Shown here piece by piece: positions 25,686 to 29,039 of a stretch of DNA of 63,688 bases. The notes below the pieces were generated by a model that searched no databases, was not told the origin of the DNA, and saw nothing but the letters and a program-made list of their open reading frames with translations. The stretch's first letter is position 1. Each line of letters opens with the position of its first letter. Source of the DNA: a virus. Position numbers and translations under genes: made by a program. The DNA is taken from positions 1-63,688 of the IMG/VR virus record IMGVR_UViG_3300036846_000403. The stretch is one strand, 5' to 3'.

Positions 25686-26615
25686 ATGAGGTACGTCAGC
25701 CTTCACCACCACAGCACCTTCAGTCACGGTGATGGGCACAAGCCTCCCGCAATTCACGTAGCCCGCGCCGCAGAACTTGGATACACCGCTATGGCTCTGA
25801 CCGAGCACGGCGGCACGAGCAGCCATTTCCAATTCGAGCAAGCAGCTATCAAGGCCGGGGTAAAGCCTCTCTTTGGGCTTGAAGCCTACACCGGCCCGGT
25901 CGACGCGAACCGGAGTCAATGGAAGTACCATCTCACGATCCTCGCCGGGAGTAATGATGGATACCGAAACCTCAATCAACTGGTCACCCAGTCTTGGCGC
26001 GATCATCACTACCATCCAACAGTTTCTGGAGAGAATCTCCAGCGCAATTCTGGAGATCTGTACATACTTTCTGGATGCACTGGATCGATGCTTGCCTGCG
26101 CTCTTGTGGGAGGTAAGGGGATTCCAGAACCTACCTCGCGCGACGGATATGGATGGGATGACGCAAGACGCATCATCAGCCGTTTTTCCCGACTATCGGG
26201 AGAACGTTATTTTCTTGAAGTCCAGCCCTTCTGGGAACTTGAGAAAACCTGTCGAATCAACCCAGCTTATGAACGCCTATCAAGGGAAACTGGCGTGCCA
26301 CTTGTCGCAACCTGTGACGTACACTACCCTAGACCCGACGACTCTGAGATGCAGGCTATCCTACACGCAGTACATCGAGGCAATCAATCGATCGATGATG
26401 CGATGAGGGCGTGGAACTATTCGGTACCAATGACGCTTCCGACTTCGGATAAGGAACTAGGCGAGCGCCTGATTAAAACTGGCCTGTCGCGGAACGCTGC
26501 CTGGGAAGCTATCCTTAACACGGAGTGGATAGCTAGCCAGTGTAACGTAACCCTGCCGAAAGCCGAGCGCCTAGTGTACCCGATTGAGGAAGGTGACTGG
26601 AAGCCGTGGACCTAG
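25686..26615 (+). CDS. DNA polymerase III alpha, PHP-domain half
   Basis: A 309-aa protein matching only the N-terminal PHP domain of DnaE. HHHSTFSHGDG at residues 7-17, LTEHGG and ATCDVHYP supply the metal-binding motifs that, in DnaE-type polymerases, give or descend from a Zn-dependent 3'-5' exonuclease. The chain ends at the linker where DnaE would continue into the catalytic palm. ATG 25686 follows AATAGGAGT. The motifs are intact, so this half could be an active proofreading nuclease. The polymerase half is encoded separately at 26787, so the holoenzyme is presumably reassembled from two chains. Confidence 0.85.
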   Translation: MRYVSLHHHSTFSHGDGHKPPAIHVARAAELGYTAMALTEHGGTSSHFQFEQAAIKAGVKPLFGLEAYTGPVDANRSQWKYHLTILAGSNDGYRNLNQLVTQSWRDHHYHPTVSGENLQRNSGDLYILSGCTGSMLACALVGGKGIPEPTSRDGYGWDDARRIISRFSRLSGERYFLEVQPFWELEKTCRINPAYERLSRETGVPLVATCDVHYPRPDDSEMQAILHAVHRGNQSIDDAMRAWNYSVPMTLPTSDKELGERLIKTGLSRNAAWEAILNTEWIASQCNVTLPKAERLVYPIEEGDWKPWT

Positions 26616-26803
26616 CTAAGTGTAAGTGTACGGCGTTCTGGGTACCGTGCGTGCGCCTAGCGACGCAGGAGGATATGCTCTGTGACGAATGCCGAGAAAA
26701 TACCTGCTGTGTAATCGAGCTGCCTGAACAAGATCCTGTACACGCACATATTATAAAACTTGATCCACGACACACTTGGAGGATCGGTGAACCGGGACTC
26801 TGA
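26606..26803 (+). CDS. Cys-rich small protein bridging the split polymerase (65 aa)
   Basis: GTG 26606 overlaps the end of the PHP gene by 10 nt, and its 3' end overlaps the catalytic-half gene by 17 nt. CKCTAFWVPC ... LCDECRENTCC gives seven Cys in the first 36 residues, a probable zinc-binding unit; the rest is a short beta/turn segment. GAGGAAGGTG lies 10 nt upstream. Its position exactly at the break between PHP and palm suggests a structural link or assembly role. That is inference. Confidence 0.65.
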   Translation: MDLAKCKCTAFWVPCVRLATQEDMLCDECRENTCCVIELPEQDPVHAHIIKLDPRHTWRIGEPGL

Positions 26804-29039
26804 ACAACTACTTTGGCAGTGGGTCCGCTACGGCTGGAACTACCGCAAGATCAACCAGCTCCCGCGCGCCGAGATAGACTGGTACGTCGAGCGCATCAAG
26901 TATGAAATGGACCTTATCCTGAAGCGCGGACTTGCTGACTTCTTCTTGTTTACCTCGGATACTATCAGATGGGGCAAGGATCACGGCATTCCATTCGGGC
27001 CGGGGCGTGGAAGCACCGCGGCCAGCGTGGTTGCCTACCTCCTACGGATTACCGAGATTCCCCCGCACAAGTACAAGGGCATGATCTTCGAGCGCTTCAT
27101 TGACATCTCCCGGCCCGACCCGCCCGACATCGACGTCGATGCCTCTGATGAGGACCGCTGGCGTGTGTGGGAGTACCTGGAGGGGAAGTATGGCGCGGAT
27201 AAGGTCGGCCATATCGGGAACTTTGTCCGGTACCGTGGGAAGAACTCGCTGGCTGACGTAACGAAAGTTTACAACATCCCGATCTATGCGCGAGAGACAG
27301 TAGCCAATCTACTGATAGAACGTTCCGGTGGAGACTCCCGGTTTAGCTCTACTCTGGCCGACACATTCGATCTCTTCCCTGAAGCACAGAAGGTACGCGA
27401 CGAGTACCCGGACATAGCCAGGGCCTGCCGTCTCGAAGGGGACGTGCGCGGGATGTCCGTCCACGCGGCCGGGCTCGTGATAGCGAATAGCCCGCTTACC
27501 GATATCTGCGCCGTGTACGAGCGCGACGGCGTTAAGGTAATGTCGATCGACAAGTATGACGTCGAGTACGCCGGTGCCCTGAAGCTTGACTTCCTTGGTC
27601 TCTCGACTATGGGGATGATTGCCCGGTGTCTCCGGATGGCCGGCCTAACCCTGGAGGATCTATATGCGGTTCCTGACGATGACCCTGAAACTATCGAGGT
27701 ATTCCGGAAGAGTGATGTCGTTGGAGTCTTTCAGTTTGAGGGTCGCGCTACACGGCTCGTCAACCGAGACGTCCATCCAGATCACTTCATGCATATCTCA
27801 GACATCAATGCTCTGTCGCGTCCTGGACCACTATTTTCCGGACAGACGGCCGCATACGTGGATGTCCGTCACGGACGCAAAAAAGCTGAAAGGCTACATC
27901 CGCTCGTGGATGAAGTCACCCTTGAGACTTATGGGCAGATCATCTACCAGGAACAGATCCTCCGAATCCTCAAGGAGATCGGTGGATTCGACTGGTTCTC
28001 TGTTAGCCAGATCCGGCGGATTATCTCGAAGAAAATGGGCGAGGCTGCCTTCCAGATGTCGTATCAGCAGTTCGCGGACGGGGCGAAGTCCCTCCACGGT
28101 ATCCCCGCCGAGACTGCTGATAAGATCTGGCGCCGCCTCGTGACGTCCGGAACCTACAGCTTTAATATCGCGCACTCGATCTCGTACTCGATGCTTGCCT
28201 TCTGGACGGCATTCCTGAAGATACACTACCCAGTCGAGTTCTACGCGGCCAGCCTAGCGAAAGCCACGAATGCCGATTCACAGTTCAGGCTTATGCGCGA
28301 TGCCCTTGCTCACTCGGTCGACGTAAAGCCACCGTCCCTCACACACTCCCGCGCCACCTGGCGTCCGGTTCCCGGCATCGGCCTAGTCGCTGGCTGGCAG
28401 TCAATCCCGAAGGTAGGCGAGAAGACTGCCTTGCGTATCGAGGCGCTAGCCGGTGACTACGGATTCGATGACTGGATCGAACTCCGCGCCATCCCAGGGA
28501 TAGGTGATAAGACTATCGCCCGTATGGAAGAGTGGACCCTGGCGCGGGACCCATTCGGACTGTACCGGACGGAGAAGCGCCTGGCCGCTGTTCTCCGGTT
28601 CCTCAAGCATCAAGGGAAAGGAGCCGCGCCAATCCCTACGCACGACGGCGACAAGCTTTCCGGAATGAAGGTGAAACAGCGTCAGCCGGGTCAGAGATGG
28701 GTACCGGGTCCGCGCGTCGTCTATATGGGGATGGTAGGTAAGGTCGAGTATAAGGACATTGTGGAAGACGAGAGGTCCCGAACCGGCAAGGAAGTAGAAG
28801 AGATCCTGAAGGAGCTGAAGCGCCCGGATCTCGTGAAGCGGGCTACTCTTCACTGCTTCGATAACAGTAATGAGGAAGTCTACGCGCGGGTGAATAGATG
28901 GCAGTTCCCGCGCCTACAGAAACAGCTAGCACAGATACACCCGAATCACGACGTCGTGGTTATCCTCGGGAACCGCATCGCCGGATTCGGTACGCCGGTA
29001 ACCGTCGAGAGAATATGGATCTTTGATCCCGACAACTAA
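26787..29039 (+). CDS. dnaE: DNA polymerase III alpha, catalytic half
   Basis: A C-family DNA polymerase lacking the PHP domain: 750 aa from GTG 26787 (GGAGGA 4 nt upstream; TTG 26760 is an alternative). It starts with NRDSEQLLWQWVRYG, the segment that follows PHP in DnaE. GRGSTAASVVAYLL (about 74-87) is the palm signature, PDIDVD (D114, D116, D118) carries catalytic aspartates, LKLDFLGL the third. FNIAHSISYSMLAFWTAFLK matches the end of the palm/fingers. A tandem helix-hairpin-helix (IPKVGEKTA, IPGIGDKTI) and a C-terminal OB-like domain follow. This is the phage replicative polymerase. Confidence 0.93.
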   Translation: MNRDSEQLLWQWVRYGWNYRKINQLPRAEIDWYVERIKYEMDLILKRGLADFFLFTSDTIRWGKDHGIPFGPGRGSTAASVVAYLLRITEIPPHKYKGMIFERFIDISRPDPPDIDVDASDEDRWRVWEYLEGKYGADKVGHIGNFVRYRGKNSLADVTKVYNIPIYARETVANLLIERSGGDSRFSSTLADTFDLFPEAQKVRDEYPDIARACRLEGDVRGMSVHAAGLVIANSPLTDICAVYERDGVKVMSIDKYDVEYAGALKLDFLGLSTMGMIARCLRMAGLTLEDLYAVPDDDPETIEVFRKSDVVGVFQFEGRATRLVNRDVHPDHFMHISDINALSRPGPLFSGQTAAYVDVRHGRKKAERLHPLVDEVTLETYGQIIYQEQILRILKEIGGFDWFSVSQIRRIISKKMGEAAFQMSYQQFADGAKSLHGIPAETADKIWRRLVTSGTYSFNIAHSISYSMLAFWTAFLKIHYPVEFYAASLAKATNADSQFRLMRDALAHSVDVKPPSLTHSRATWRPVPGIGLVAGWQSIPKVGEKTALRIEALAGDYGFDDWIELRAIPGIGDKTIARMEEWTLARDPFGLYRTEKRLAAVLRFLKHQGKGAAPIPTHDGDKLSGMKVKQRQPGQRWVPGPRVVYMGMVGKVEYKDIVEDERSRTGKEVEEILKELKRPDLVKRATLHCFDNSNEEVYARVNRWQFPRLQKQLAQIHPNHDVVVILGNRIAGFGTPVTVERIWIFDPDN

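What the first reader, a model, noticed from the sequence alone, without database searches (positions are those of the whole stretch)
25686..29039. DNA polymerase III alpha split exactly between PHP and palm, with a Cys-rich gene in the gap
PHP motifs are intact in 25686-26615; GRGS, PDIDVD and LDFLGL motifs are intact in 26787-29039. The break is at the domain linker, not a random frameshift, and a seven-Cys small protein (26606-26803) overlaps both halves. This suggests an evolved two-chain (or three-chain) replicase.
Basis: partly seen in the sequence, partly recalled or inferred. Interest (0 to 1): 0.75.

Follow-up and report, generated by a model that had tools for sequence, protein, structure and literature searches.

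The report
Phage replicase split into two genes
In this soil phage, and independently in several other phage lineages, the DNA-copying enzyme has been cut at one fixed point into a predicted proofreading part (PHP) and a copying part made from separate genes, while the small cysteine-rich gene between them is an unrelated passenger; this suggests that a proofreading domain can be detached from a bacterial-type replicase again and again.

Summary
ORF 25686-26615 is a complete DnaE PHP domain with all nine metal ligands; ORF 26787-29039 is palm-fingers-OB with all catalytic motifs; four in-frame stops separate them. It is not an error: all 21 closest IMG/VR relatives are split at the same linker, as are named isolates (Onyinye, Wollypog, Hager, Suzy, LittleFella, LilyPad, Rope). 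Over about 90 polymerases the state changes at least 8-9 times. Fission-only models beat fusion-only by 9-11 log units, so about nine independent fissions are the best reading. Both halves are under purifying selection, and AlphaFold docks them as in intact Pol III alpha, even without fused sequences in the alignment. The 'third chain' reading fails: the gap (-10 to 3125 nt) holds different genes in different phages, and the Cys-rich family mostly occurs elsewhere. New here: split PHPs nearly all end in an acidic-xPW tail, and the next gene's start codon lies inside that last Trp codon (NTGG; 55 of 61), so re-initiation probably couples the genes. Authors have already noted two pol III alpha genes in cluster EF phages; hence a new variant of a known kind. 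A free-standing PHP proofreader is predicted, not shown.

The parts
25686..26615 (+). Free-standing PHP subunit of DnaE (309 aa), the predicted Zn-dependent 3'-5' exonuclease half; ligands H7 H9 D16 H41 E66 H82 C131 D211 H213
   Evidence: Pfam PHP 3.9e-29; nine-ligand pattern HHDHEHCDH; PDB phmmer to Taq DnaE 2.3e-22; pn/ps 0.15-0.21
26604..26615 (+). PHP terminal codons CCG TGG ACC TAG (P-W-T-stop); GTG at 26606-26608 inside CCGTGG is the start of the next ORF (10-nt overlap)
   Evidence: Sequence; embedded NTG in 55 of 61 split loci, ORF of 40 aa or more in 50 of 55, against 37 of 151 at internal Trp codons
26606..26803 (+). Cys-rich gap gene (65 aa, CxC-x6-C...ATQEDxLCDxCRx3C), predicted small zinc-binding phage protein; passenger, not a replicase subunit
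   Evidence: No Pfam/PHROG hit; invariant Cys pattern; pn/ps 0.23 against L010; 11 of 16 family loci have no PHP or pol nearby
26778..26789 (+). Shine-Dalgarno-like GGAGGA (26778-26783) and GTG start of the polymerase half (26787-26789)
   Evidence: Sequence
26787..29039 (+). Polymerase half of DnaE (750 aa): palm, thumb, fingers, HhH region, OB fold; GRGS, PDIDVD, KLDFLGL intact
   Evidence: Pfam 3.9e-61 and 7e-36; PHROG 11165 3.8e-257; OB fold by structure comparison

Best explanation
The phage's DnaE-type replicase is made as two chains from one operon: a free-standing PHP subunit and a palm-thumb-fingers-OB subunit. They bind without a covalent link in the arrangement of an intact Pol III alpha, so the PHP half both props up the palm and supplies the proofreading exonuclease, as DnaQ does for E. 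coli in trans. The split is old and fixed in this phage clade and arose several times in related phages by gene fission at the PHP-palm linker. The surviving junctions are those where a terminal Trp codon (NTGG) of the PHP gene provides the start codon of the following cistron, so translation restarts across the break. Once the halves were separate genes, the junction became an ordinary place for phage gene exchange, and the Cys-rich gene is one such passenger. Shown: the split, its conservation and recurrence, purifying selection, intact active sites, the embedded starts. Inferred: non-covalent assembly, exonuclease activity, translational coupling.
For: All 21 closest relatives are split at the same linker with gaps from overlap to 3125 nt; 62 distinct split and 36 fused loci were compared. 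The 34 split lineages around the window form one clade with fused L074 and L075 as nearest outgroups. State changes: 9 on the pol tree, at least 7 forced; 8 on the PHP tree, at least 6 forced. Fission-only lnL -29.3 against fusion-only -38.9, robust to tree and rooting. pn/ps is about 0.15-0.2 for both halves. The nine metal ligands are intact, matching the 'active PHP' motif of PMC12926913. No DnaQ-type exonuclease in the window. AlphaFold of the read-through tether: pTM 0.86, and 0.83 with split genomes only; both match E. coli alpha over about 850 residues spanning PHP and pol (Z 44.3 and 45.7, rmsd 4.0 and 4.3). In L015, L062 and L064 pol itself starts inside the PHP's PW codons. Barros et al. 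2013 (PMC3666897) show that the PHP domain stabilises the polymerase.
Against: No biochemistry was found for any split member. AlphaFold may place PHP on pol from memory of DnaE, and the tether is artificial. The direction (fission rather than fusion) rests on a simple two-state model and on trees with long branches; gene transfer could inflate the count. The terminal W is also kept where it is not used as a start (Suzy, LilyPad, Hager), so the start codon is not its whole explanation.
Confidence: 0.77

Rival explanations
1. The PHP half no longer belongs to the replicase. It works alone as a nuclease or phosphatase, and the polymerase half copies DNA without it.
For: Stand-alone PHP enzymes exist; the models match BAD_1165 and RNase AM at Z about 15-17. 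No interaction has been measured.
Against: The two genes stay adjacent or near-adjacent in all split loci found; the PHP-palm interface is predicted to be kept; mutations in the PHP domain destabilise E. coli Pol III (PMC3666897).
Confidence: 0.12
2. Three-chain replicase: the Cys-rich protein bridges or regulates the two halves.
For: Its ORF overlaps both genes, is under purifying selection (pn/ps 0.23), and relatives sit in the same gap in L010, L014, L016 and L020.
Against: Missing from most gaps, including junctions with almost no gap (L011, L015, L062, L064); replaced by unrelated genes; 11 of 16 family members lie away from PHP or pol.
Confidence: 0.04
3. Sequencing error, frameshift or decayed gene.
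For: None beyond the fact that fused homologues exist.
Against: Four in-frame stops over 171 nt; same split in tens of independent contigs and in sequenced isolates; purifying selection on both halves.
Confidence: 0.01
4. The two genes are rejoined after or during translation, by recoding or by a split intein.
For: DnaE is a known intein host; phage Wojtek carries an intein-like insert of 263 aa in this gene.
Against: No intein domain at the window junction; up to 3125 nt of other genes in the gap (L023); several stops; the PHP ends with its own conserved tail.
Confidence: 0.02

Closest known systems
Cluster EF Microbacterium phages (Krampus, AnnaSerena, Hager, Annapurna)
   Same: Two adjacent genes related to DNA Pol III alpha, PHP half then pol half; [quoted passage not shown] PHP tail DDLKPW
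   Different: Separate fission on the tree; no gene in the gap; PHP carries a long C-terminal extension; about 42% identity in pol
Mycobacterium phage Onyinye gp82/83/84, Rope gp72/73/74, Arthrobacter phage Wollypog gp56-59, Gordonia phages Suzy, LittleFella, LilyPad
   Same: Same split point, PHP ending in a W-terminated acidic tail, and a small gene or HNH gene in the gap in some
   Different: 37-49% identity; the gap genes are unrelated to the window's; annotated only as two DnaE-like genes
M. tuberculosis DnaE1 with PHP exonuclease
   Same: Nine-ligand trinuclear-zinc PHP site and DnaE fold (PMC5636811)
   Different: One chain; proofreading is intramolecular
E. coli Pol III alpha plus epsilon (DnaQ)
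   Same: Works like it: the proofreader is a separate chain bound to the polymerase
   Different: DnaQ is an unrelated DEDD nuclease; the E. coli PHP is inactive and fused
Cyanobacterial split DnaE (Npu/Ssp inteins)
   Same: DnaE encoded in two genes (from general knowledge)
   Different: Break lies elsewhere, and the halves are joined by a split intein; none is found here

Membership tests
C-family DNA polymerase (DnaE-type Pol III alpha) | PHP domain with nine metal ligands HHDHEH[C/H]DH | tested here: met
   HHDHEHCDH in the window and in the complete relatives; motif definition from PMC12926913
C-family DNA polymerase (DnaE-type Pol III alpha) | Palm catalytic motifs PDxDxD and KxDFLGL, GRGS loop, fingers domain | tested here: met
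   Pfam hits; invariant D116, D118, D268 in 12 relatives
C-family DNA polymerase (DnaE-type Pol III alpha) | PHP-palm-thumb-fingers arrangement | tested here: met
   Models match 2hnh at Z 44.3 and 45.7 over about 850 residues spanning both halves; prediction only
C-family DNA polymerase (DnaE-type Pol III alpha) | One polypeptide | tested here: not met
   Two ORFs with four in-frame stops between
C-family DNA polymerase (DnaE-type Pol III alpha) | Clamp-binding motif and polymerase/exonuclease activity | not testable with these tools
   Activity needs biochemistry; the clamp motif was not searched
Split-intein DnaE | Intein halves at the junction | tested here: not met
   No intein family at the PHP C-terminus, the small ORF or the pol N-terminus; the gap holds unrelated genes
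Gene split by a homing endonuclease | Homing endonuclease gene at the break | tested here: not met
   None in the window gap; present only in L012, L028 and Wollypog
Free-standing proofreading subunit (works like DnaQ) | Exonuclease activity in trans on the polymerase's primer | not testable with these tools
   Ligands intact and no DnaQ in the window; no assay

The most novel reading that the evidence does not exclude
Phages have repeatedly turned the PHP domain into a true separate, exchangeable proofreading subunit of a C-family replicase. Its convergent acidic-xPW tail acts as a docking peptide, and proofreading can be dosed or swapped independently of the polymerase. Fission is made easy by Trp codons (NTGG), which carry a ready restart codon, a general rule for how coupled two-chain enzymes arise.
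Probability: 0.2. Interest if true: 0.75.

Novelty: new variant of a known kind. Interest (0 to 1): 0.52.

Why it matters
The PHP exonuclease has been proposed as the ancestral bacterial proofreader (PMC5636811), but in the cellular replicases described it is fused to the polymerase, so its two roles, structural and catalytic, are hard to separate. These phages have done the separation naturally, about nine times by our count, which offers ready two-chain systems to ask whether the polymerase needs PHP for folding, whether PHP proofreads in trans, and what sets fidelity. The embedded start codon also gives a concrete, testable route by which a gene can break in two without losing expression.

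Tried and rejected
Three-chain replicase: rejected by gap turnover and by the distribution of the Cys family. Gap as a special cargo hotspot: not kept. The junction upstream of PHP varies as much, and genes that sit elsewhere in the window (20382, 24712) sit inside the gap in L058 and L067, so it behaves as an ordinary exchange junction. Homing-endonuclease origin: HNH/NUMOD genes are in only a few gaps, so not general. Split intein or recoding: no support. One ancestral split with later fusions: fits worse by 9-11 log units, but cannot be excluded if lineages exchanged genes. The genome-contig scan returned only low-identity (38% or less) cellular-type DnaE rather than a close prophage relative. 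A megablast of window 20001-45000 against named phages found nothing. A split-only alignment without bridging rows misaligned (A4) and was replaced by A5. Literature searches found no study of this split beyond two genome papers that mention it in passing.

Full report
What is there. The window is a 63,688-base virus record from IMG/VR. ORF 25686-26615 is a complete DnaE PHP domain and ORF 26787-29039 the rest of DnaE. Sequence searches of the PDB put the break between Taq DnaE residues 295 and 383, that is, in the PHP-palm linker. The halves are in one frame with four stops between, so no single-base error makes the split. The seven-Cys ORF at 26606-26803 overlaps PHP by 10 nt and pol by 17 nt.

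It is conserved. The 21 closest relatives found with the PHP half (61-91% identical) are all split at the same point, with gaps between the halves from a few bases to 3125 nt. Named isolates with the same split are Onyinye, Wollypog, Hager, Suzy, LittleFella, LilyPad and Rope; fused examples are Nocardia P3.1, Benzema, Lizz, Gibbin, Hawkeye, Predator, Yndexa, GRU1, Darwin, Wentworth, Braxoaddie, Emma1919 and Asten. A second scan added 80 loci, some of them the same contigs. Both halves are under purifying selection, with pn/ps about 0.15-0.2 against nine relatives (dS is near saturation, so only the proportion ratio is used).

It is recurrent. On a 92-row polymerase tree the split/fused state changes at least nine times, seven of them forced by well-supported branches; the window sits in a clade of 34 split lineages whose nearest outgroups, L074 and L075 (57-58% identical), are fused. 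The PHP tree gives eight changes, six forced. A two-state model fits fission only as well as fission plus fusion (lnL -29.3) and fusion only much worse (-38.9); stochastic maps give about nine fissions and no fusion, with the same order on the PHP tree and with another root. Gene exchange among phages and long branches are the main cautions.

Anatomy of the junction. Split PHPs keep the linker as far as a short tail, typically YP-I-x-(D/E)-(D/E)-D-(W/L)-x-P-W-(T). PW is present in 49 of 62 split loci, most others still ending in W, and the acidic-PW pattern in none of 36 fused linkers. In 55 of 61 split loci the last Trp codon, with the base before it, reads ATG, GTG or TTG; from there an ORF of at least 40 aa runs in 50 of 55, against 37 of 151 at internal Trp codons of the same genes. 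The Pro codon before it is CCA in 29 of 47 cases against 22% in the gene body. In L015, L062 and L064 this codon is the start of pol itself, with a 10-nt overlap (L116 also has such a frame, but a later ATG overlapping the stop is as likely). In the window it starts the Cys-rich gene. So the junction looks like a coupled restart, and in most loci the first gene after PHP, whatever it is, takes its start codon from there. Since Suzy, LilyPad and Hager keep the tail without using the start, the tail may also matter in the protein; AlphaFold gives residues 301-310 a mean pLDDT of 76-83.

The gap genes. Contents differ between close relatives: Cys-rich genes (window, L010, L014, L016, L020), NUMOD3/HNH genes (L012, L028; HNH also in Wollypog), methyltransferases (L010, and by sequence likeness L013, L023, L026), and in L023 a DpdA, Vut-type transporter and QueC set. 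Two genes that flank the locus in the window sit inside the gap in L058 and L067. The Cys-rich family (CxC...ATQEDxLCDxCR...C) was found at 16 IMG/VR loci, 11 of them with no PHP or pol nearby and one just upstream of a PHP gene. It is a small, probably zinc-binding phage protein, not a third chain.

Does it work as one enzyme? The nine PHP ligands are HHDHEHCDH, the pattern called active in PMC12926913 and seen as a trinuclear zinc site in M. tuberculosis DnaE1 (PMC5636811). No DnaQ-type exonuclease was found in the window. PHP integrity affects stability and activity of E. coli Pol III (PMC3666897), so the halves probably must bind. As a computational tether only, the window was read through its four stops: the 1117-residue model has pTM 0.86, with only residues 311-347 (the tether) below pLDDT 50 as a segment. 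Repeating it with split genomes only gave pTM 0.83. Both models match E. coli Pol III alpha over about 850 residues spanning both halves (2hnh, Z 44.3 and 45.7, rmsd 4.0 and 4.3), and an OB fold is seen at 979-1117 of the model. This fits non-covalent assembly but does not prove it, since AlphaFold knows DnaE.

Against what is known. Jacobs-Sera et al. [quoted passage not shown] I found no study that locates the break, shows its recurrence, or treats the PHP half as a separate proofreader; the library holds open papers only. PHROGs files a PHP-half family as 'unknown function' (phrog_7513). I therefore rate it a new variant of a known kind.

Noticed in passing
L023:6924-8904: The 3.1 kb gap between PHP and pol holds DpdA, a Vut-type transporter and QueC, a likely 7-deazaguanine DNA modification set, followed by a methyltransferase-like gene.
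   Followed up: partly
L038 (Mycobacterium phage Cuke) 3983-7218: DnaE is split at a different place, around pol residue 284, as two genes overlapping by 4 nt (601 and 477 aa).
   Followed up: no
L046 (Gordonia phage Wojtek) 3887-4675: In-frame 263-aa intein-like insert with an HNH motif in DnaE, missing from its close relative Gibbin; the record annotates only DnaE-like polymerase.
   Followed up: partly
window:25686-26615: PHROG 7513, one of the two best PHP-half families, is labelled unknown function although it is the DnaE PHP domain; annotation could be corrected.
   Followed up: no
L029:1230-2166: The PHP reading frame breaks at residue 41/42 in this contig only, probably a sequencing error.
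   Followed up: no
window:59359-59991: ORF that looks like a NUMOD4/HNH-type protein (reading of the sequence only, not searched).
   Followed up: no
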